Shown piece by piece: positions 6,773-14,681 of a stretch of 64,000 bases of DNA (the first letter of the stretch is position 1; each line of letters opens with the position of its first letter). The notes under the pieces were generated by a model that saw only the letters and a program-made list of their open reading frames with translations, made no database searches and was not told where the DNA came from. The translations under genes and the position numbers were made by a program. The DNA comes from Ktedonobacteraceae bacterium (GTDB lineage: Bacteria; Chloroflexota; Ktedonobacteria; Ktedonobacterales; Ktedonobacteraceae), in assembly GCA_035653615.1 (NCBI GenBank), contig DASRBN010000042.1, positions 1-64,000 on the forward strand, in the 5' to 3' direction.

Positions 6773-8209
6773 CTATTTTCTCAGTTGCTTATTTCGTAAC
6801 CTGGGTATCAGTCTCTTGATCAAAAGCGGTACCCATCTGCGTAAATAGGTCAGCTTCCGTGGATCCACATCCTTTTCGCCATACCGTTCTAACAAGTACG
6901 CCTGCGTCAACTCCTCTAGAATCATCGCATCATCAGGTGACTTGCCTGCATATGTTTGTCTCGTCGGTTCTAGAGCGGCCAAAAGGCGATATTGATACTC
7001 GAGTGGCGTTTCGTTAGCGCGTCGTCTGCCTGCATCTTCACCTCGCCAGGCCATTGCTTGCAGAAATTCACGATAGCGGGCGCGCGCCGATGCGGCGTTG
7101 AGCGGTTCGCGTGCTTTTCTGACTTCCTTTGGCGGGCGGCGTCTCGCGCTAGCTGGTATGCTTTTTTGTATCTCATTCTCATCAATGCGACCTCGCAAGA
7201 TGTGCAGTATCATCCACACCACAGCTACCAGCACAACCAGCGTCAACAAGGCAATGCCTATGATCGCCAGTAATCGCAATGCCTCATCAACAAGAGGAGA
7301 AACGGGTGGCGCATGCTTTTCTGGTTGCGCATCTATCCCCGGCGTCGGAGTGAGTTTGAGTTTGAGAGGGCGGGGCGGGGGTCCCGGCTGCGCAAAAAGG
7401 AAACCTAGCAGCCAGAAATACCACGCACGCACTATCGTGAGCAATGGCGCAAACAACGCTTCAAGCGGTCCAAATGCTGCCACACTCAGGATCATCGTGA
7501 AAGCCGCGATTGCCGCCAGGAAAAACAGCGTCAACAGCCCCGTTCTCGCGAACTGTGTACGCAACCCTCTGCTCGCGTTCGGGCTGCTATACTTCGTATT
7601 CAAATAACTCACCGAAAGTGCCGCGAAACCGCTCAGACCAAACACCGGCAGAACCATTCCGAGCGCATCAAATAGCGGTGTATGAGAAAACGCGGGATAG
7701 ACTACTACTAACAGCAGCAGGGCCAGGAGCGTTCCAAATCCGATCTGAAAAATAACCAGCAGCGACTCTTCCTGCCCACCTTTTTCAACACGCACCTTCC
7801 CACGCCACCAGAAGCTGAGGCTCAGAATACCTGTAGCAATGAGCTGTGGAATACCTGCCGCAAACGGGGGATGCAGGCCCACTACCAGGAGATAGATCAC
7901 TGGTAACGCAGGAACATAGACCAGCTGAGCGCGCTCTTCCCCTAGCCGTGGCTGGATCCCTCGTTTTACCACGAACGCCCACCAGTAGGTACTCCACCAG
8001 ATGAGTATCACGCCACCCTCGAGTAGAAGTGGTGGTTCGCTCTTGCCTGTAAAAAGCAGCGCCCCGATCACAAATCCCAGCACCCCGAACTGCGCTTCCA
8101 TCACTCCCACCACCATCGGAACAGCCATGGTGTCCAGCCAGTTGAAACGGGCAGGCCTCCGTTCAGTCAGGCGCTCGCCTTTCGTTAGCAATGGCGTGAA
8201 TAAGCGCAT
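6773..8209 (-). CDS. DUF4129-type membrane protein of the MoxR operon
   Basis: About 478 residues. The N-terminal two thirds hold about eight to nine membrane segments. The last segment (about residues 320-345) is followed by a cytoplasmic or exterior C-terminal domain with ASARARYREFLQAMAWRGEDAGRRRANETPLEYQYRL, the DUF4129 signature region found in transglutaminase-type proteins of MoxR operons. No transglutaminase Cys-His-Asp core is visible here. The start is uncertain: the chosen ATG (8209) overlaps the end of the DUF58 gene by 47 bp, and GGGAGGAAG lies upstream of it; an in-frame ATG also exists at 8263. Last gene of a MoxR-DUF58-DUF4129 operon. Confidence 0.7.
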   Translation of the reverse strand: MRLFTPLLTKGERLTERRPARFNWLDTMAVPMVVGVMEAQFGVLGFVIGALLFTGKSEPPLLLEGGVILIWWSTYWWAFVVKRGIQPRLGEERAQLVYVPALPVIYLLVVGLHPPFAAGIPQLIATGILSLSFWWRGKVRVEKGGQEESLLVIFQIGFGTLLALLLLVVVYPAFSHTPLFDALGMVLPVFGLSGFAALSVSYLNTKYSSPNASRGLRTQFARTGLLTLFFLAAIAAFTMILSVAAFGPLEALFAPLLTIVRAWYFWLLGFLFAQPGPPPRPLKLKLTPTPGIDAQPEKHAPPVSPLVDEALRLLAIIGIALLTLVVLVAVVWMILHILRGRIDENEIQKSIPASARRRPPKEVRKAREPLNAASARARYREFLQAMAWRGEDAGRRRANETPLEYQYRLLAALEPTRQTYAGKSPDDAMILEELTQAYLLERYGEKDVDPRKLTYLRRWVPLLIKRLIPRLRNKQLRK

Positions 8210-9527
8210 GCCATCTCTCACTTCCTCCCACAGCATATATGGGGAAATCAACCGCCTCAGCAAGGGTCAGCATATCCTGGTCACCTACCAGTACACATTG
8301 GACAACACTCCCTTTTGAACGCACTTCCTGAAGCCGTTCGATGGTGACCGGAGACAAGGTCTGTACCGCACTTACGAGTATGACGGATGTTCCTCTGGTG
8401 AATATCTCGTCTTGCCTCTCCAACACCTCTTCCATCGGCACGTTCAGGTAAGGCACGAGCCGCGCAAAGGTGGTCAACAACCGCTCGTATTGTCCTGCGT
8501 CACGATCAAAAGGCACATATATCCCTTCAGGAACAAGATCAGCCGCCATACCTGGTTCTCCCCAGTGCTGCTTCGCTTGCCCGACAGTCTGGCCGCTCAA
8601 CTCCCGCCCGGTCAGCGCGGCACAATTTGTCAGCAGGCCTACCATATAGCCTTCATCGAGCGAGTAGATCGCAACCGAGGCAGCCACTGCTATCGCAAAC
8701 TCCTGCATCTCCCAGCTCAAAGCGACCAGTGTTTTCTCCGGCGTTCCCATCTCCAATATGACAAGCACCCGGCGTTGATAACTGTACTCGTACACTTTAC
8801 TACGTAACTCGCCAGCGCGGGCGCTGGTCTTCCAATGAATGCGGCGCGGATCGTCATCCAGTTGATACTCACGCACGCCTACTACATAGAGCGGATCCTC
8901 GAACAGTCCATGTGTCGTATGTGCTTCTCCCATCAGATGCAGCCCTGGCAGTCCCAGGTCTTCCAGGGAAGCCAGAGGCGGGTAGACCAGCAGCGTGTCA
9001 TACAGCGGCAACGTGATCCGTCGTTTCATCCAGCCAAACGGATCACTGATTTCTAAGGTAAACGGCCCCACCATGTAGAAGCCACGCCCAAAGCAACGCA
9101 GATGATAGCGACGAGTCGTTCGCTCAAATCCCCACAGGCTTCCAACATAATCTATGGCCCCCAGCGTCTCGCGTTGCGCCTCTTGCAGAGAGAAAAACGG
9201 CAGCGGGGGTCGTAACGGCACCTGACAGGCCAGCCCGATCAGGGGCAGTCGTTTCTGGTTCTCAATCGTCACCGTGAGTGCCACATCTTCCCCAAAAAAG
9301 AGGCGTTGCGGGTGGACCTGTTGGCGCGCTTCAAGCGAGCGCAATGCATAGCGATACCACCAGGCAGGCACACAAGCGATAACCAGCGCGAACAGCGCGG
9401 CCAGGAACAACAGCGGTTGTTCAATTACCAGGCTCATGATAGAGAGGACGCAGCCAGGCACATACCAGAGTCGGTGCAGGCGCAACGGTTTCGTATCGAG
9501 CGGGTCAAGAACATCATCGGTCTGCAC
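8163..9527 (-). CDS. DUF58 domain protein (MoxR partner)
   Basis: 454 residues. Two hydrophobic segments near residues 25-60 are followed by a Greek-key-like region and the DUF58 core: VGVREYQLDDDPRRIHWKTSARAGELRSKVYEY. The family is a von Willebrand A-like partner of MoxR AAA+ ATPases, often needed for assembly or activation of exported enzymes. It sits 12 bp after the MoxR gene, and its 3' end overlaps the DUF4129 gene, giving a tightly coupled operon. Confidence 0.85.
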   Translation of the reverse strand: MQTDDVLDPLDTKPLRLHRLWYVPGCVLSIMSLVIEQPLLFLAALFALVIACVPAWWYRYALRSLEARQQVHPQRLFFGEDVALTVTIENQKRLPLIGLACQVPLRPPLPFFSLQEAQRETLGAIDYVGSLWGFERTTRRYHLRCFGRGFYMVGPFTLEISDPFGWMKRRITLPLYDTLLVYPPLASLEDLGLPGLHLMGEAHTTHGLFEDPLYVVGVREYQLDDDPRRIHWKTSARAGELRSKVYEYSYQRRVLVILEMGTPEKTLVALSWEMQEFAIAVAASVAIYSLDEGYMVGLLTNCAALTGRELSGQTVGQAKQHWGEPGMAADLVPEGIYVPFDRDAGQYERLLTTFARLVPYLNVPMEEVLERQDEIFTRGTSVILVSAVQTLSPVTIERLQEVRSKGSVVQCVLVGDQDMLTLAEAVDFPIYAVGGSERWHALIHAIANERRAPD

Positions 9528-9539
9528 GTATCCCTCTTC

Positions 9540-10553
9540 CTACTTTCTGGCCGGTGGTGGCGCGATTTCTTCTATAGGTACAGGGATAGCCTCGATAATT
9601 TCTGCTAGAATTTCTTGTTGTCGTTTTCCCCGCAGCCGAGTGCGTGTGGTAGTGAGTAATCGGTGCGGAAGTAAGCTGGGAGCCAGCCGCTTCACATCAT
9701 CCGGCAGCACATACGCCCGCCCCTGCATGGCCGCAAATGCCTGGCTTGTCCGGTAGAGCGCCATGGTGCCACGCGGGCTAATGCCCAGTGCTACCGCCGG
9801 ATGCTCCCGCGTTGTCCGCACAATAGCAAGCAGATAGCGTTCAACCTGCGCCTGCCAATGAACTTGCCGGATCACGCGTTGCAGTTCTATCACCTGCTCC
9901 GCTGTTACGACCGGTTGCAAGCTCTCCAGCGGGTCTTCCTGTTTAAAGCGGTGCAGGATGGCCTGTTCCTCATCTTCGGTAGGATAGCCAAGCCGGGTAC
10001 AAAGCAAAAAACGGTCCAGTTGCGCTTCAGGAAGCGGAAACGTTCCTTCCAATTCGATTGGGTTCTGGGTCGCCAGGACCAGAAACGGCTTTGCCAGCGG
10101 CATTGTTTCCCCATCCACCGTTACTTGCCGTTCCGCCATCGCTTCAAGCAAGGCCGCCTGCGTGCGCGGTGTAGCCCTATTAATCTCATCCACTAATAAA
10201 ATATGCGTAAAAATCGGACCTGGACGAAAGATAAAGGCTTGCTTGCGCTGATCAAAATAACTGATGCCGGTAATGTCCGTCGGTAACAAATCCGGCGTTC
10301 CCTGAATACGATGGAACGAGGCCCCCAATGAATGTGCTAGCGCCTTCGCTAGCATCGTCTTGCCCATCCCCGGCATATCTTCAATCAACACATGTCCATC
10401 GCTCAACAAGGCTGCGATCACCAGGTCAATCACCTCGCGCTTGCCAATCAACACTCGCTCAATATTCTCTCGCATCGCCTTCGCCGCCTGTTGCACTTGC
10501 CCCACCTGGGCGGCAAATGCCTCGTCAGCTAGCATAGGCCTTGCCTCTTCCAC
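9540..10553 (-). CDS. MoxR-family AAA+ ATPase
   Basis: 337 residues of the AAA_3 class. Walker A is seen in EDMPGMGKTMLAKALA (about residues 57-72) and Walker B in HILLVDEINRATPRTQAALLEAM, with sensor region VLATQNPIELEGTFPLPEAQLDRFLL and a C-terminal lid domain with sensor 2 (GISPRGTMALYRTSQAFA). MoxR proteins act as chaperone-like ATPases with DUF58/VWA partners. First gene of the operon. A start at Met7 (10535) is also possible. Confidence 0.92.
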   Translation of the reverse strand: MEEARPMLADEAFAAQVGQVQQAAKAMRENIERVLIGKREVIDLVIAALLSDGHVLIEDMPGMGKTMLAKALAHSLGASFHRIQGTPDLLPTDITGISYFDQRKQAFIFRPGPIFTHILLVDEINRATPRTQAALLEAMAERQVTVDGETMPLAKPFLVLATQNPIELEGTFPLPEAQLDRFLLCTRLGYPTEDEEQAILHRFKQEDPLESLQPVVTAEQVIELQRVIRQVHWQAQVERYLLAIVRTTREHPAVALGISPRGTMALYRTSQAFAAMQGRAYVLPDDVKRLAPSLLPHRLLTTTRTRLRGKRQQEILAEIIEAIPVPIEEIAPPPARK

Positions 10554-10634: not shown

Positions 10635-11141
10635 TTATGTACGCTTCTCCTTTACCTCGCCTCCAATACCCGACAACTTCCTAACTACTATTCCTCCTAC
10701 TTGGTCAAAAGAGATGGGACCCCACAAGACAGAATCTACACTTTCTGCTTGGTTATCCCCTTGAACAAAAAGATGTCCTGGAGGAATATGCCACATGCGC
10801 TGGTTTCCAATATGGTGTTGAGCATGCAGCGATAGTGTAACATGTTCTGAAAGATCAGAAGGAAAGGTAATTATATCACCAGGGACTCCGGTAATACGCT
10901 TAATGTATGGTGGGAGTCCCTTGAATCGCTGACTTTCTTGCTGTAAGATAATGATTTGACCTCGTCGTAAAAATCTGGCCGGCCAAAAACGCCAGATGAG
11001 TACACGATCACGCTCGCAAAGAGTGGGAAGCATACTCCGGCCTTGTATTGTAATCACTACAAAAGCAACACGTATTATCCCAATAATAACACATATCAAG
11101 AGTAAGAGGAATATGTCGCATATGAATAAAAACGTCATCAC
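10635..11141 (-). CDS. Signal peptidase I (S26), linked to the Cys-rich peptide locus
   Basis: 168 residues with one N-terminal membrane anchor (residues 3-30). Box B IQGRSMLPTL carries the nucleophile Ser36, and YIKRITGVPGD carries the general base Lys81. GDNQAESVDSVLWGPI (128 on) is the box E equivalent of GDN..S.DSR. All catalytic parts of type I signal peptidase are present, so it should cleave Ala-X-Ala sites on exported proteins. It is short for the family. It follows a secreted Cys-rich peptide whose leader ends in AVA, which suggests that peptide is its client. The start is GTG 11141 or the next codon, ATG 11138; no strong SD separates them. Confidence 0.85.
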   Translation of the reverse strand: MMTFLFICDIFLLLLICVIIGIIRVAFVVITIQGRSMLPTLCERDRVLIWRFWPARFLRRGQIIILQQESQRFKGLPPYIKRITGVPGDIITFPSDLSEHVTLSLHAQHHIGNQRMWHIPPGHLFVQGDNQAESVDSVLWGPISFDQVGGIVVRKLSGIGGEVKEKRT

Positions 11142-11228
11142 GAGCTTTTCTCTTCTTCATCAATTCGGCAAGCATTCGCGATCCTACGGAAACATTAGAG
11201 CATAAAGCTAGGAGCTATGAGCGATGGC

Positions 11229-11261
11229 CCTCCACACCTAAGCGCACGTCAGGTGTGGAGG
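11229..11261. other. Perfect 11-bp hairpin between the peptide and peptidase genes
   Basis: CCTCCACACCT (11229-11239) and AGGTGTGGAGG (11251-11261) pair fully around an 11-nt loop. No T-tract follows on either strand, so it is not a standard Rho-independent terminator. In a polycistronic message it could slow decay of the upstream peptide mRNA or reduce read-through into the peptidase gene. Confidence 0.6.
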
Positions 11262-11310
11262 ACAGGCTTCATAAGTCCATTTAGATGCAAAAACCGCGCT
11301 CCCACATTAA

Positions 11311-11610
11311 CTAGTCGCAATAACCTCCCCCGCAACAACTGGTGTACTGGGTACAATTGAATGCCCCTGACTCACACTGGTTAAAACCTGCTGCATAATA
11401 GTTTACAGTGACTGGGCAGCCAAGTGCCTTATAACAAGCTGAGTCATAATGCCACTCGCAATGACTCTCGCAGTATGTTCCACTGCAAGCGACGGCGATA
11501 GATTGTGGAGCAATCACAACCACAATACGGTCGATAAAGGTACTGAGCGGATTGATCTTCGATATGAGGCGATCAACCATCGAAACAAGAGTGTTCGCGA
11601 ATGATTTCAT
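11311..11610 (-). CDS. Cys-rich secreted peptide precursor (bacteriocin-like), ten Cys
   Basis: 99 residues. Residues 1-41 form a leader with a weak hydrophobic core (IVVVIAPQSIAVA) ending in Ala39-Val40-Ala41, a good signal peptidase I site. The predicted mature part (42-99, 58 residues) has ten cysteines at 42, 47, 51, 59, 65, 79, 86, 92, 93 and 98 and ends CCGGGYCD. A strong AAAGGAG precedes the ATG. An even number of Cys and the neighbouring thioredoxin and MauE-like genes suggest up to five disulfides. Size and Cys density recall disulfide-rich bacteriocins (fulvocin C, halocin C8) or small redox-enzyme subunits such as MauA, but no family was recognised. A toxin or structural role is inference only. 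Confidence 0.7.
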   Translation of the reverse strand: MKSFANTLVSMVDRLISKINPLSTFIDRIVVVIAPQSIAVACSGTYCESHCEWHYDSACYKALGCPVTVNYYAAGFNQCESGAFNCTQYTSCCGGGYCD

Positions 11611-11643
11611 AAGAAATCTCCTTTGTTGAGGTTTAGTTACTTT

Positions 11644-11658
11644 GTTCGGTTAGCGAAC
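11644..11658. promoter_or_regulatory. Inverted repeat upstream of the peptide gene
   Basis: GTTCG-GTTAG-CGAAC, two 5-bp arms around 5 bp, lies in the 135-bp gap ahead of the peptide gene, about 34 bp from its start. It could be a binding site for a dimeric regulator that controls the peptide apart from the genes upstream, but this rests on symmetry alone. Confidence 0.3.
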
Positions 11659-11745
11659 ACACCAATCAAAGCTACAAAAACTGCCTGAAGAATTGTTTCA
11701 CAAGAAGCTTCTCAAATCACCTCCCTTCGTCCGTTTCATGAGACA

Positions 11746-12306
11746 TTAAACTGTACTTTGTTCTACCTGCCTTTCCCAAGCTTCTGCAAGCCCCTTCCAT
11801 TTTCCCCATTTCAAGTTCGGCGACCCAGTAGACTGCACTTTGCCTTCTGTATCAATCAAACAATAGGCTGGAGTACCTGACACTAGATAATCCTTCGTAA
11901 AGGGATTACTATCGTGAGGTGCTATCAGAATCGGCAAGGTGATGTTGAATTCGTCAACAAAACGGCGTGTTCGTTCACTGTCAGCCGTACTCACTAGCAC
12001 AAGATCAACGTTCGCTCGTGCCGCCTTCGGACCGAGGTATTCGTAACTCGGCAGGGCTTCACGGCATGGCCCGCATGCCGGTTCAATAAATATAAAAGCT
12101 ATATTTCTTCCTGTAAATGATTCTAAAGTCACCGTTTCGCCACGGAGGGTTTCAGCAGAAAAATGGGGTGCTGGCTGTCCTTCCTTGAGACTGTTTCTCG
12201 GCTGATACATAGAATTTATTCTTCGCACAAGCGCAAGGGTTAAGATCAGATTCACTAACACAAGCACCCAAAGTAATATTGAACTTAGCAGAAGAAGTTG
12301 TTGCAT
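11746..12306 (-). CDS. MauD/TlpA-like membrane-anchored thioredoxin
   Basis: 186 residues. One N-terminal membrane anchor (about 5-28) places the thioredoxin fold outside the membrane. The domain starts GQPAPHFSAETLRGETVTL, with active site Cys78-Gly-Pro-Cys81 in FIFIEPACGPCREALPSYEYL and the cis-Pro loop VSGTPAYCLID. This is the AhpC/TSA-redoxin form seen in MauD and in TlpA/ResA proteins. It lies 39 bp after the MauE-like gene and before the Cys-rich peptide gene, so a role in making or rearranging disulfides of that peptide is likely. SD AAGGGATG precedes the ATG. Confidence 0.85.
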   Translation of the reverse strand: MQQLLLLSSILLWVLVLVNLILTLALVRRINSMYQPRNSLKEGQPAPHFSAETLRGETVTLESFTGRNIAFIFIEPACGPCREALPSYEYLGPKAARANVDLVLVSTADSERTRRFVDEFNITLPILIAPHDSNPFTKDYLVSGTPAYCLIDTEGKVQSTGSPNLKWGKWKGLAEAWERQVEQSTV

Positions 12307-12345
12307 GTTTCATCCCTTGTTTCTGGACACCTGTATTCAGCGGAA

Positions 12346-12879
12346 CTACCCCTGCTGAAAAAGCTGTACAATTTCGTCAAGATGAAGCCAGAGAAACCAA
12401 AATACCGCTGCTCCAAGTCCAATCACTCCCCATTCAGCCGGACTAAGGTATGCCTGGCTAGTATTCGGTTCGGCAAGAATAATGCATCCAGCACAGGCGC
12501 ATACGATAAAACCTACATTCCTCCACCCTTCAATAGCGGACACCATTTTTTTCGTCGAACCAAAACAATTGCAGGATGTTCTAATATGTCGTCGCAAGAC
12601 CGAAATAAGGGCGGTACAGAATATGCTCAAAAGCAAAATACTTAGGTAAAAACCAGGTTTCAGAAATGGCCCTCCTACGGTAACGAGCAGAGCAACAACA
12701 CATTCTCCAACTAAGAAAAGCAAAGCCACTGCGCGCGTAATAGATCGAGGCAAGATGTCAAACTGAATGATTGTTTGCTCAAATGCGGCCATATTCATCA
12801 TCTTTTTTACCGATGAAAAGCCAAAGACAAGTGCTATGACGATACGGCAGAACGACAAAACAAAGAGCAGAATCATCAA
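12346..12879 (-). CDS. MauE/DoxX-like redox membrane protein
   Basis: 177 residues with four to five membrane helices. The family motif Cys103-Asn-Cys105-Phe-Gly is present after an Arg-rich loop (LRRHIRTSCNCFG). A second Cys group lies in a membrane helix (Cys127, 129, 132). MauE-type proteins pair with MauD thioredoxins in methylamine dehydrogenase maturation and in other loci where disulfides are formed outside the cell. Here the partner thioredoxin gene follows at once. Start is TTG 12879 or the adjacent ATG 12876, behind GAGGAG. First gene of the peptide operon. Confidence 0.8.
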   Translation of the reverse strand: MMILLFVLSFCRIVIALVFGFSSVKKMMNMAAFEQTIIQFDILPRSITRAVALLFLVGECVVALLVTVGGPFLKPGFYLSILLLSIFCTALISVLRRHIRTSCNCFGSTKKMVSAIEGWRNVGFIVCACAGCIILAEPNTSQAYLSPAEWGVIGLGAAVFWFLWLHLDEIVQLFQQG

Positions 12880-12991
12880 TGAAGTATTTCTCCTCTTTAT
12901 AATGAGCTAAATTGCCATTGGCCGAACAAAAAGTTTGAGAGGTATCTATCAGGAACGAACTACAGGGTGCATAATACAAGCATCTTGATAA

Positions 12992-13020
12992 AGCATACCT
13001 GATATTTCTTTATTTATCAA
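12992..13020 (-). promoter_or_regulatory. σ70-type promoter of the Cys-rich peptide operon
   Basis: On the minus strand, TTGATA (13020-13015), a 17-bp spacer and TATGCT (12997-12992). It lies about 115 bp upstream of the MauE-like start and just 16 bp from the left end of the insertion sequence, which leaves both hexamers intact. Confidence 0.5.
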
Positions 13021-13036: not shown

Positions 13037-13058
13037 GGGTGTGTTTCATTTTTTTGCA
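13037..13058. repeat. IS left inverted repeat (22 bp)
   Basis: Reads GGGTGTGTTTCA, seven T, then GCA inward, and is the exact reverse complement of 14690-14711. Confidence 0.9.
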
Positions 13059-14305
13059 CCAACCAGGGGCGAGCTCGTCGAGGGAGAAGAAGGACGCCTC
13101 AAAAACGGTTTGCGCCAGGAATAGCCAGGGCTCACCCGACGAACAGTCGGCTGGGCCGCAGCCTCAACTGCTGGGGAAGAGGCAGCGGCCACAGGTGGTC
13201 GACCGAGTCGCTCCAGCCGGACTTGCCAGTACATCAGGCTCCACAAGACAGAGGCGAGTCGCTGTTGGCTCTTGGCCTCTCGCCGTTGGCTCCGTTGGCT
13301 GCGCAGCTTCGCCTGAACTTGCTTCCACGTTTGGCTCCAGCGTCGATTACAGACCGCATTGCGCAGCACGAGCATGGGATTGACGTTCTGCTCCTGCCAC
13401 CGCATGCCTGCTCCTTTTAAGCGGGCTTCCACCACCAGCTTGTTGGCGCTCTCGACGCTGCCGGAGCCAATGGGCCACCCGGCGGCCTGATAGCTGGGGT
13501 CTTGCATCTGCCCCTCGCGCTTCTCTAAATAGGCCAGATGGCTCTGGATGGTGGCACTGGGAAAGTGAGCGGCCACCCCCCTGAGATGGCGCAGCACGCG
13601 AGAGGGTCCCTCATGCTTGAGCCGATGCAACGCCCCTTGCAGCCACCACTGGGGCAAGTGGCCTCCCTGCGCTCTCACCTCCTGCCCGATTTCGTTGAGG
13701 TATTCACTGGCATGGGCAAAATCTAGGATGCGCACCGCATCAGCGCGATGGTAGTCGACCAGGCCTTGCAGCCACAGCGCCCCATCTTGCACCGCGCACA
13801 CCTCCTTTGCCCCTTCCAGCCCTCGTCGATGCGTTTCCACCAGGGCAGCTTGTTCAAAGCTGGTGGCCTCGGCCAGACGGGAGAAGTAGGAGAGGTGTTG
13901 GGTGCAGACCTCCCCTCGTTTGTTGCGTGCCACTTCCCCCAAAGCCAGGGTCTTGATTTCCACCCATTCCCCCCCAACCAGATGCACCATCGCTCCATCC
14001 GCACTGAGCTGCTGTTTGTCGGCTCCAGCAGGAGCTTGGGGCAACTCCTGCTGGAGGCGCTCCTGCTCGGCCTCATCGAGTCTAAGCCCGATCTGTGCAT
14101 TGTTCAGGGTGGCGCGTCGAGCCGTCGCCTTGCTTACCCGTATCCCTACCAGGTCAGCGAGCAGCTCGGCAGCTTGCTCAAAAGGCATCCAGATGCACAA
14201 CCGCACCAACGTTTCCTCCCCGCGTGGACTCAGCCCTGCACTGCCCAGGCCTAACTGCTCATCGAGGGGGAAAAAAGCCTTGCCCACATTGTGGGCAGGT
14301 GCCAT
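13046..14305 (-). pseudogene. ISKra4-type transposase, C-terminal frame (frameshifted)
   Basis: This frame carries the catalytic part. Acidic motifs visible are LSADGAMVHL (first Asp), VCAVQDGALWLQGLVDYHR and VRILDFAHASEYL (middle), and PIGSGSVESANKLV (Glu), fitting a DDE-type transposase. The meaningful sequence begins only at FFPLDEQLGLG. The codons before it (MAPAHNVGKA) are an out-of-frame reading of the zinc-finger coding sequence of the other frame. Joining the two requires a +1 (or -2) shift within the T6-C5 run at about 14266-14276. A Ser/Pro/Arg-rich tail ends the protein. Either frameshifting or slippage joins the frames, or the copy is inactive. Confidence 0.75.
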
Positions 14306-14681
14306 AGGTGCGTCTCACCTTGACCGCTTGCCCTCCGCTCGTTTCTACAAAGCGGCTGTGCTCTCCTCGCGACACCAATGCTTTGCCACACGTCTCACAC
14401 CTCGGGCGTTGCTCTTGCGGCAGCTGACTCCATGACTGGCTCTCTCCCATCTGCACCAGATCCTCGATCACTTGCGCCCGCACCTGGTTCATTTGCTCAT
14501 CGACCGCCGCTTCGATCTCAGCCCACGTCGCCGCTGGGTGCTCTTTCCTCCATTGGCTCATCCCTAGCAGGTCGCGCAAACCGGCGCTCACTTGCTGGAT
14601 CTGCTCACTGCGCTGCCGTTTGTTCTTCTTAGCTTTCCTGCTCTCATCTCCCTCGGCTTGTTTTTCCCTGTATTGTACCAC
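14259..14681 (-). pseudogene. ISKra4-type transposase, N-terminal frame
   Basis: 140 residues. A basic, coiled-coil-prone N-terminus is followed by a zinc-ribbon: CETCGKAL (Cys-X2-Cys) and, later, CPQCGQGFFP (Cys-X2-Cys), which is typical for the start of ISKra4 transposases. The frame stops with PPR directly after the homopolymer run, while the other frame continues FFPLDEQLGL. The natural protein would read through this point as one chain of about 540 residues. Removing one base from the run restores it. Confidence 0.75.

What the first reader, a model, noticed from the sequence alone, without database searches (positions are those of the whole stretch)
10635..13020. Cys-rich secreted peptide with its own oxidative-folding pair and signal peptidase
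Four minus-strand genes in a row encode a MauE-like membrane redox protein (CNCFG motif), a MauD/TlpA-like thioredoxin (CGPC), a 99-residue precursor whose 58-residue mature part holds ten cysteines after an AVA cleavage site, and a full signal peptidase I. MauE and MauD are known to help mature the multi-disulfide subunit of methylamine dehydrogenase. Here the client looks to be the small peptide, and no dehydrogenase genes are nearby. This suggests a self-contained module for making a disulfide-locked extracellular peptide (possible antimicrobial, signal or structural protein). The peptide's function is inference; no known family was recognised.
Basis: partly seen in the sequence, partly recalled or inferred. 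Interest (0 to 1): 0.75.

Follow-up and report, generated by a model that had tools for sequence, protein, structure and literature searches.

The report
Dedicated assembly line for disulfide-rich peptide
A soil bacterium of the Ktedonobacteria carries a small gene set that appears to make, cut, fold and release a cysteine-rich peptide; related sets in its relatives keep the leader but vary the active part, as in bacteriocin or venom-peptide families, and the product is still uncharacterised.

Summary
The four-gene block is real: MauE (PF07291), a MauD/TlpA-type thioredoxin with CGPC, a 99-aa precursor (41-aa leader, AVA site, 58-aa core with 10 Cys) and an S26 signal peptidase with an intact Ser/Lys dyad. 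The precursor matches nothing in Pfam, NCBIfam, PHROGs or PDB. It does belong to a new family: 15 members here, in 5 of 47 Ktedonobacteria genomes plus two other Chloroflexota. Fourteen of the 15 lie beside MauE and TlpA. Cores diverge more than leaders (6-10 Cys); Ktedonosporobacter rubrisoli has four in tandem. Several family loci add an ABC exporter without a peptidase domain. S26 accompanies 7 of 8 family loci and none of 39 other MauE loci in the class. More broadly, 25 of 47 MauE loci in the class have a same-strand ORF with 8 or more Cys within 2 kb, against 3 of 130 control tiles; many of those clients have Tat-like leaders instead. Best reading: a RiPP/bacteriocin-like pathway in which S26 removes the leader and MauE-TlpA folds the exported peptide. 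The bioactivity is unproven. decRiPPter (2020) had already proposed MauE/MauD with Cys-rich precursors in Streptomyces, so this is a new variant of a known, still uncharacterised kind.

The parts
12346..12879 (-). MauE-family membrane redox protein, 177 aa, CNCFG motif (TTG start, or ATG at 12876 behind an AGAGGAG ribosome site)
   Evidence: PF07291 1.5e-23; 43-47% identical to MauE of four other modules incl. K. robiniae, K. formicarum and own contig C44
11746..12306 (-). TlpA/ResA/MauD-type membrane-anchored thioredoxin, 186 aa, CGPC
   Evidence: PF00578 5.2e-15, TIGR02661 2.1e-9 below cut-off; CxxC kept in 10 of 10 modules
11311..11610 (-). Cys-rich precursor, 99 aa
   Evidence: no Pfam/NCBIfam/PHROG/PDB match; family profile built without it E=4.1e-11
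11488..11610 (-). leader, 41 aa, amphipathic helix ending APQSIAVA
   Evidence: conserved family leader; predicted helix 4-33 at low confidence
11314..11487 (-). predicted mature core, 58 aa, 10 Cys
   Evidence: AxA site conserved in position across the family; cleavage not shown
11228..11263 (-). stem-loop between precursor and S26 gene, likely limits read-through or protects the precursor mRNA
   Evidence: -31.6 kcal/mol, z=-4.0; a hairpin lies after the precursor in 11 of 12 loci checked
10635..11141 (-). S26 type I signal peptidase, 168 aa, Ser/Lys dyad intact
   Evidence: PF10502 1.6e-21, TIGR02227 84.8 bits over cut-off 47; catalytic motifs aligned
12992..13020 (-). promoter-like site TTGATA-17-TATGCT upstream of MauE (weak evidence)
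   Evidence: consensus scan, number found not above chance

Best explanation
The block is a production unit for an exported, disulfide-rich ribosomal peptide. The ribosome makes a 99-aa precursor with an amphipathic leader. The precursor crosses the single membrane, in most relatives by a dedicated ABC exporter (in this genome possibly the one on contig C34, or Sec). The dedicated S26 peptidase cuts after A-x-A. The 58-residue core is then folded at the outer face by MauE, acting as membrane electron relay, and the CGPC thioredoxin, giving up to five disulfides. The leader is the shared recognition tag; the core is the variable payload, most likely an antimicrobial (bacteriocin-like) or signalling peptide. 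Shown from sequence: gene order, motifs, family, leader/core contrast, co-occurrence. Inferred: export route, cleavage, disulfides, activity.
For: Family recurrence with the same neighbours in 5 of 47 class genomes and in two other Chloroflexota. Jackknife profile E=4e-11. Among K. rubrisoli paralogues the leader is more conserved than the core in 9 of 10 pairs (e.g. t3/t4 89% vs 58%, dN 0.05 vs 0.36). ABC exporter with no peptidase domain found by Pfam, next to S26 in the MAG, K. rubrisoli, K. robiniae, K. formicarum and Chloroflexales loci. S26 with 7 of 8 family loci and 0 of 39 other MauE loci, p=1.3e-7. MauE loci carry a Cys-rich ORF of 8 or more Cys in 25 of 47 cases versus 3 of 130 controls, p=2e-14. 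Related MauE/TlpA pairs sit in a class I lanthipeptide cluster (LanB, LanC) and in MvdD-type ATP-grasp clusters. Hairpin after the precursor gene.
Against: No experiment. No ABC exporter or immunity gene in the window locus. One orphan precursor. Core not folded confidently (pLDDT 50). MauE redox direction is inferred from the mau literature. A TlpA/ResA-like CGPC motif is often reducing rather than oxidising (own knowledge).
Confidence: 0.72

Rival explanations
1. The peptide is a structural or surface (spore, aerial-mycelium, envelope) protein, or a signal, rather than an antimicrobial; the machinery is as proposed.
For: No immunity gene recognised; core of the window is acidic (net -4) and not cationic; the class has a complex life cycle (PMC6497799).
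Against: Patchy distribution (5 of 47 genomes), tandem paralogues and diverging cores are more typical of secreted effectors.
Confidence: 0.35
2. The Cys residues bind metal or need reduction: TlpA (CGPC) and MauE act reductively or as isomerase, and the product is a metal-binding peptide.
For: The TlpA is closest to ResA/StoA models, which act as reductases (own knowledge); several cores have Cys-rich ends and some His.
Against: Cys spacing is not conserved as a metal site would be; extracellular export favours disulfides; the mau literature assigns MauE to disulfide formation, itself only speculated (cited in PMC7794033).
Confidence: 0.15
3. MauE/TlpA are general folding helpers and their position beside the precursor is incidental.
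For: The genome has 10 MauE genes, so MauE is not unique to this peptide.
Against: MauE sits beside Cys-rich ORFs far above background, with separate MauE/TlpA copies per client, many of them Tat-type; fixed order in independent genomes.
Confidence: 0.06
4. The window peptide is a Sec-exported protein or a lipoprotein (AVA-C resembles a lipobox) and does not use a special export route.
For: Its leader has the most hydrophobic stretch of the family (KD9 2.32); no ABC gene at the locus; Cys directly follows AVA.
Against: The first Cys is at residue 42, late for a lipobox; most relatives have 1-4 residues between AxA and Cys; a type I peptidase is encoded next to it.
Confidence: 0.25
5. It is a remnant or relative of methylamine dehydrogenase maturation with a small light-chain-like protein.
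For: MauE and MauD-like genes adjacent to a Cys-rich exported protein, as with MauA.
Against: No PF02975 match in the genome or for any of 15 precursors; no profile match to any MADH chain of the PDB.
Confidence: 0.03

Closest known systems
decRiPPter candidate RiPP families with mauE (one also mauD) in Streptomyces (Kloosterman et al. 2020, PMC7794033)
   Same: MauE (and MauD) beside a precursor with at least 8 Cys, no mau dehydrogenase; proposed role in precursor modification
   Different: Streptomyces, not Chloroflexota; no S26 gene is mentioned in that passage; precursor sequences could not be compared here (supplement not held)
TMcin (Staphylococcus; PMC13252029)
   Same: Same logic: leadered precursor, membrane protease for the leader, dedicated thiol oxidase, ABC exporter
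   Different: S2P-type protease instead of S26, DsbA (CPHC) instead of MauE+TlpA, one disulfide and a transmembrane helix in the product
mau system (methylamine dehydrogenase maturation)
   Same: MauE plus MauD-like thioredoxin serving a disulfide-rich exported client
   Different: Client is a 58-aa peptide unrelated to MauA; no light chain in the genome; heavy chain not detected (search control silent)
Class I lanthipeptide and MvdD-type ATP-grasp clusters of Ktedonobacteria with MauE-TlpA (L056, L054, L055)
   Same: Related MauE/TlpA used inside recognised peptide-modification clusters
   Different: They have LanB/LanC or ATP-grasp enzymes; the window module has none and no leader-family precursor occurs there

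Membership tests
RiPP / bacteriocin-type precursor pathway | conserved leader with variable core | tested here: met
   Leader more conserved than core in 9 of 10 K. rubrisoli pairs; family-wide 39% vs 27% identity once shared Cys are left out; dN contrast
RiPP / bacteriocin-type precursor pathway | leader peptidase encoded with the precursor | tested here: met
   S26 gene in 7 of 8 family loci of the class, catalytic residues intact; that it cuts the leader is inferred
RiPP / bacteriocin-type precursor pathway | dedicated exporter | tested here: inconclusive
   ABC exporter in most relatives; absent at the window locus, one with MauE-TlpA on contig C34
RiPP / bacteriocin-type precursor pathway | post-translationally modified, bioactive product | not testable with these tools
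   needs mass spectrometry and bioassay
decRiPPter mauE candidate family | mauE (and mauD) next to a precursor with at least 8 Cys, no mau dehydrogenase | tested here: met
   10 Cys in the core
decRiPPter mauE candidate family | precursor homologous to the Streptomyces precursors | not testable with these tools
   supplement not held; no Actinomycetota genomes reachable after the one genome-contig scan
Methylamine dehydrogenase (mau) system | MADH light chain PF02975 present | tested here: not met
   0 matches in the genome at E<=1, weak hits in 5 controls; none of 15 precursors
Methylamine dehydrogenase (mau) system | MADH heavy chain PF06433 present | tested here: inconclusive
   0 matches, but the control rang nowhere
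Lanthipeptide | LanB/LanC/LanM-type enzyme at the locus | tested here: not met
   none among the window ORFs scanned; present only in the unrelated L056 cluster
Sec signal peptide | hydrophobic core before an A-x-A site | tested here: inconclusive
   A-x-A kept; window KD9 2.32 but other leaders 0.6-1.5
Tat signal peptide | twin arginine in the leader | tested here: not met
   no RR in any of the 15 leaders, unlike many other MauE clients of the class

The most novel reading that the evidence does not exclude
A new class of leader-guided, S26-processed peptides whose only core modification is disulfide formation by a dedicated MauE-TlpA pair, with a leader-constant, core-variable architecture like conotoxins; and, behind it, a general rule that MauE proteins are client-dedicated folding factors for exported Cys-rich proteins, of which methylamine dehydrogenase is one special case.
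Probability: 0.5. Interest if true: 0.78.

Novelty: new variant of a known kind. Interest (0 to 1): 0.62.

Why it matters
If true, it gives MauE, a widespread membrane family with a guessed role, a directly testable function: making disulfides in one small client encoded next to it. It also gives a searchable leader for mining disulfide-rich peptides in Chloroflexota, which the family and RiPP libraries used here do not recognise, and a compact gene set for producing multi-disulfide peptides.

Tried and rejected
Viral contigs: no relative of the precursor. Plasmids with MauE: no match. Class of G304: no further member. AlphaFold model of the precursor too poor to use (pLDDT 49.8), so no fold search was run. 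PADLOC: only generic ATPase matches to the ABC protein. Weak hits L005, L009-L013 and L015 were dropped: stops inside or no module beside them, and not found by the profile. MADH light-chain kinship looked tempting by eye but failed the profile test. A lipoprotein reading was considered and kept as part of a rival.

Full report
Observation. The precursor has no match at E<=1 in Pfam or NCBIfam, none in PHROGs or PADLOC at the thresholds used, and no credible match in the PDB sequences, alone or as a family. Upstream lies a transposase ORF pair (13046-14681), downstream MoxR-DUF58-DUF4129 genes. Module G+C is 44.5% against 52.6% for the window and 60.7% for the transposase stretch.

A family exists. 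The same genome holds a second module on contig C44 with the order MauE, TlpA, precursor, S26. A profile then found the family in 5 of 47 Ktedonobacteria genomes, in one further Chloroflexota genome (G304) and, through MauE, in a Chloroflexales MAG (L071). Named hosts are Ktedonobacter robiniae, Ktedonospora formicarum and Ktedonosporobacter rubrisoli. Without the window sequence the profile still finds the window ORF at 4e-11, the next ORF of the window at 0.1. Of 15 precursors, 14 lie beside MauE and TlpA; the exception is an orphan in K. rubrisoli at 1398725. K. rubrisoli carries four in tandem in one module.

Leader and core. Leaders are 35-44 aa, amphipathic, with a conserved end of the type (A/L)P(Q/T/K)..A.A. 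Cores have 6-10 Cys and vary in length and spacing. Between K. rubrisoli paralogues the leader is more conserved in 9 of 10 pairs; for t3/t4 dN is 0.05 in the leader and 0.36 in the core, while dS is 0.45 and 1.22, so part of the contrast could be rate rather than selection, and most other pairs are saturated for dS. Over the whole family the raw identity of leader and core is equal (39% each) because shared Cys inflate the core; without Cys-Cys columns the core falls to 27%.

Machinery. TlpA keeps CxxC in 10 of 10 modules. S26 keeps its Ser, Lys and GDN motifs in 8 of 8. In four modules S26 is fused to a second thioredoxin-like domain that has lost the CxxC pair (HKLC, ERLS, NRLA, TSIS), perhaps a client-binding domain (role inferred). 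An ABC exporter of 610-629 aa, with ABC ATPase and in some cases a detectable membrane domain but no peptidase domain, follows S26 in the MAG, K. rubrisoli, K. robiniae, K. formicarum and Chloroflexales loci. The 0.4-Mb K. rubrisoli locus also scores for this exporter within 4 kb. The window locus has none; the own-genome contig C34 carries such an exporter with MauE and TlpA at a contig edge. The C44 module instead adjoins a 925-aa FtsX-like permease. A stem-loop lies between precursor and next gene in nearly all loci, as is common where a precursor must be made in excess (own knowledge).

Wider rule. The genome has 10 MauE genes, and reading their surroundings shows a Cys-rich, often twin-arginine, exported ORF beside nine of them; the tenth is at a contig edge. 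Across the class, 25 of 47 MauE loci have a same-strand ORF of 60-180 aa with at least 8 Cys and a Cys-free start within 2 kb, against 3 of 130 strand tiles of control DNA (p=2e-14). The criterion is mine and was tightened after a first pass (33 of 47 versus 19 of 130); all three thresholds give p below 1e-12. Control DNA came from 13 stretches of five genomes, not from every genome. S26 occurs with 7 of 8 family loci and 0 of 39 other MauE loci (p=1.3e-7). Loci of one genome are not fully independent, so these p-values are optimistic.

Links to peptide natural products. Related MauE-TlpA genes lie in a class I lanthipeptide cluster (L056: LanC, LanB, ABC, MauE-TlpA fusion) and beside MvdD-type ATP-grasp genes with an SDH-type protease (L054, L055). 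decRiPPter reported three Streptomyces candidate families with mauE, one with mauD, each with a precursor of at least 8 Cys (PMC7794033). TMcin biosynthesis, shown experimentally, uses the same division of labour with other proteins (PMC13252029). The survey of Ktedonobacteria secondary metabolism does not mention MauE (PMC6497799).

Mechanism proposed. Export (ABC or Sec), cut after A-x-A by S26, folding by MauE and TlpA outside the membrane, release. What is shown is sequence and association; export, cleavage, disulfides and activity are inferred. The redox direction of MauE-TlpA is the weakest step.

Verdict. Observation confirmed, interpretation supported with the changes above; a new variant of a known but uncharacterised kind.

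Noticed in passing
own genome contigs C39, C37, C23, C12, C33 (L080-L085): Every further MauE gene of the genome away from a contig edge adjoins one or more exported ORFs with 8-18 Cys, mostly with twin-arginine leaders; three on C39 are MauE-TlpA-TlpA fusions of about 510-545 aa.
   Followed up: partly
L018:7554-8519, L020:9528-10577, L052:4340-5278, L057:5543-6514: S26 peptidase fused to a thioredoxin-like domain whose active-site cysteines are lost; possibly a client-binding domain.
   Followed up: partly
L056:204-7846: Class I lanthipeptide cluster (precursor with CC motifs, LanC, LanB, ABC) containing a MauE-TlpA fusion.
   Followed up: no
L054:4485-7974 and L055:5350-8735: MvdD-type ATP-grasp gene, ClpP-like SDH-type protease, MauE and TlpA in a row: a possible further peptide pathway; precursor not identified.
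   Followed up: no
L051:4933-7478: K. formicarum locus with intact MauE whose TlpA reading frame is broken off next to a transposase-like ORF; looks like a decayed module.
   Followed up: partly
L018:4773-7550 and L082:3358-6015: Large FtsX-like permeases (925 and 885 aa), 55% identical, each beside a MauE and Cys-rich peptide locus of the same genome; candidates for export or self-protection.
   Followed up: no
L071:2160-4760 and 7232-9829: Two large solute-binding lipoprotein-like genes (about 865 aa) flank S26 and ABC in the Chloroflexales module.
   Followed up: no
window 13046-14681: Two overlapping transposase ORFs (frameshift arrangement) with higher G+C directly upstream of the module.
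   Followed up: no
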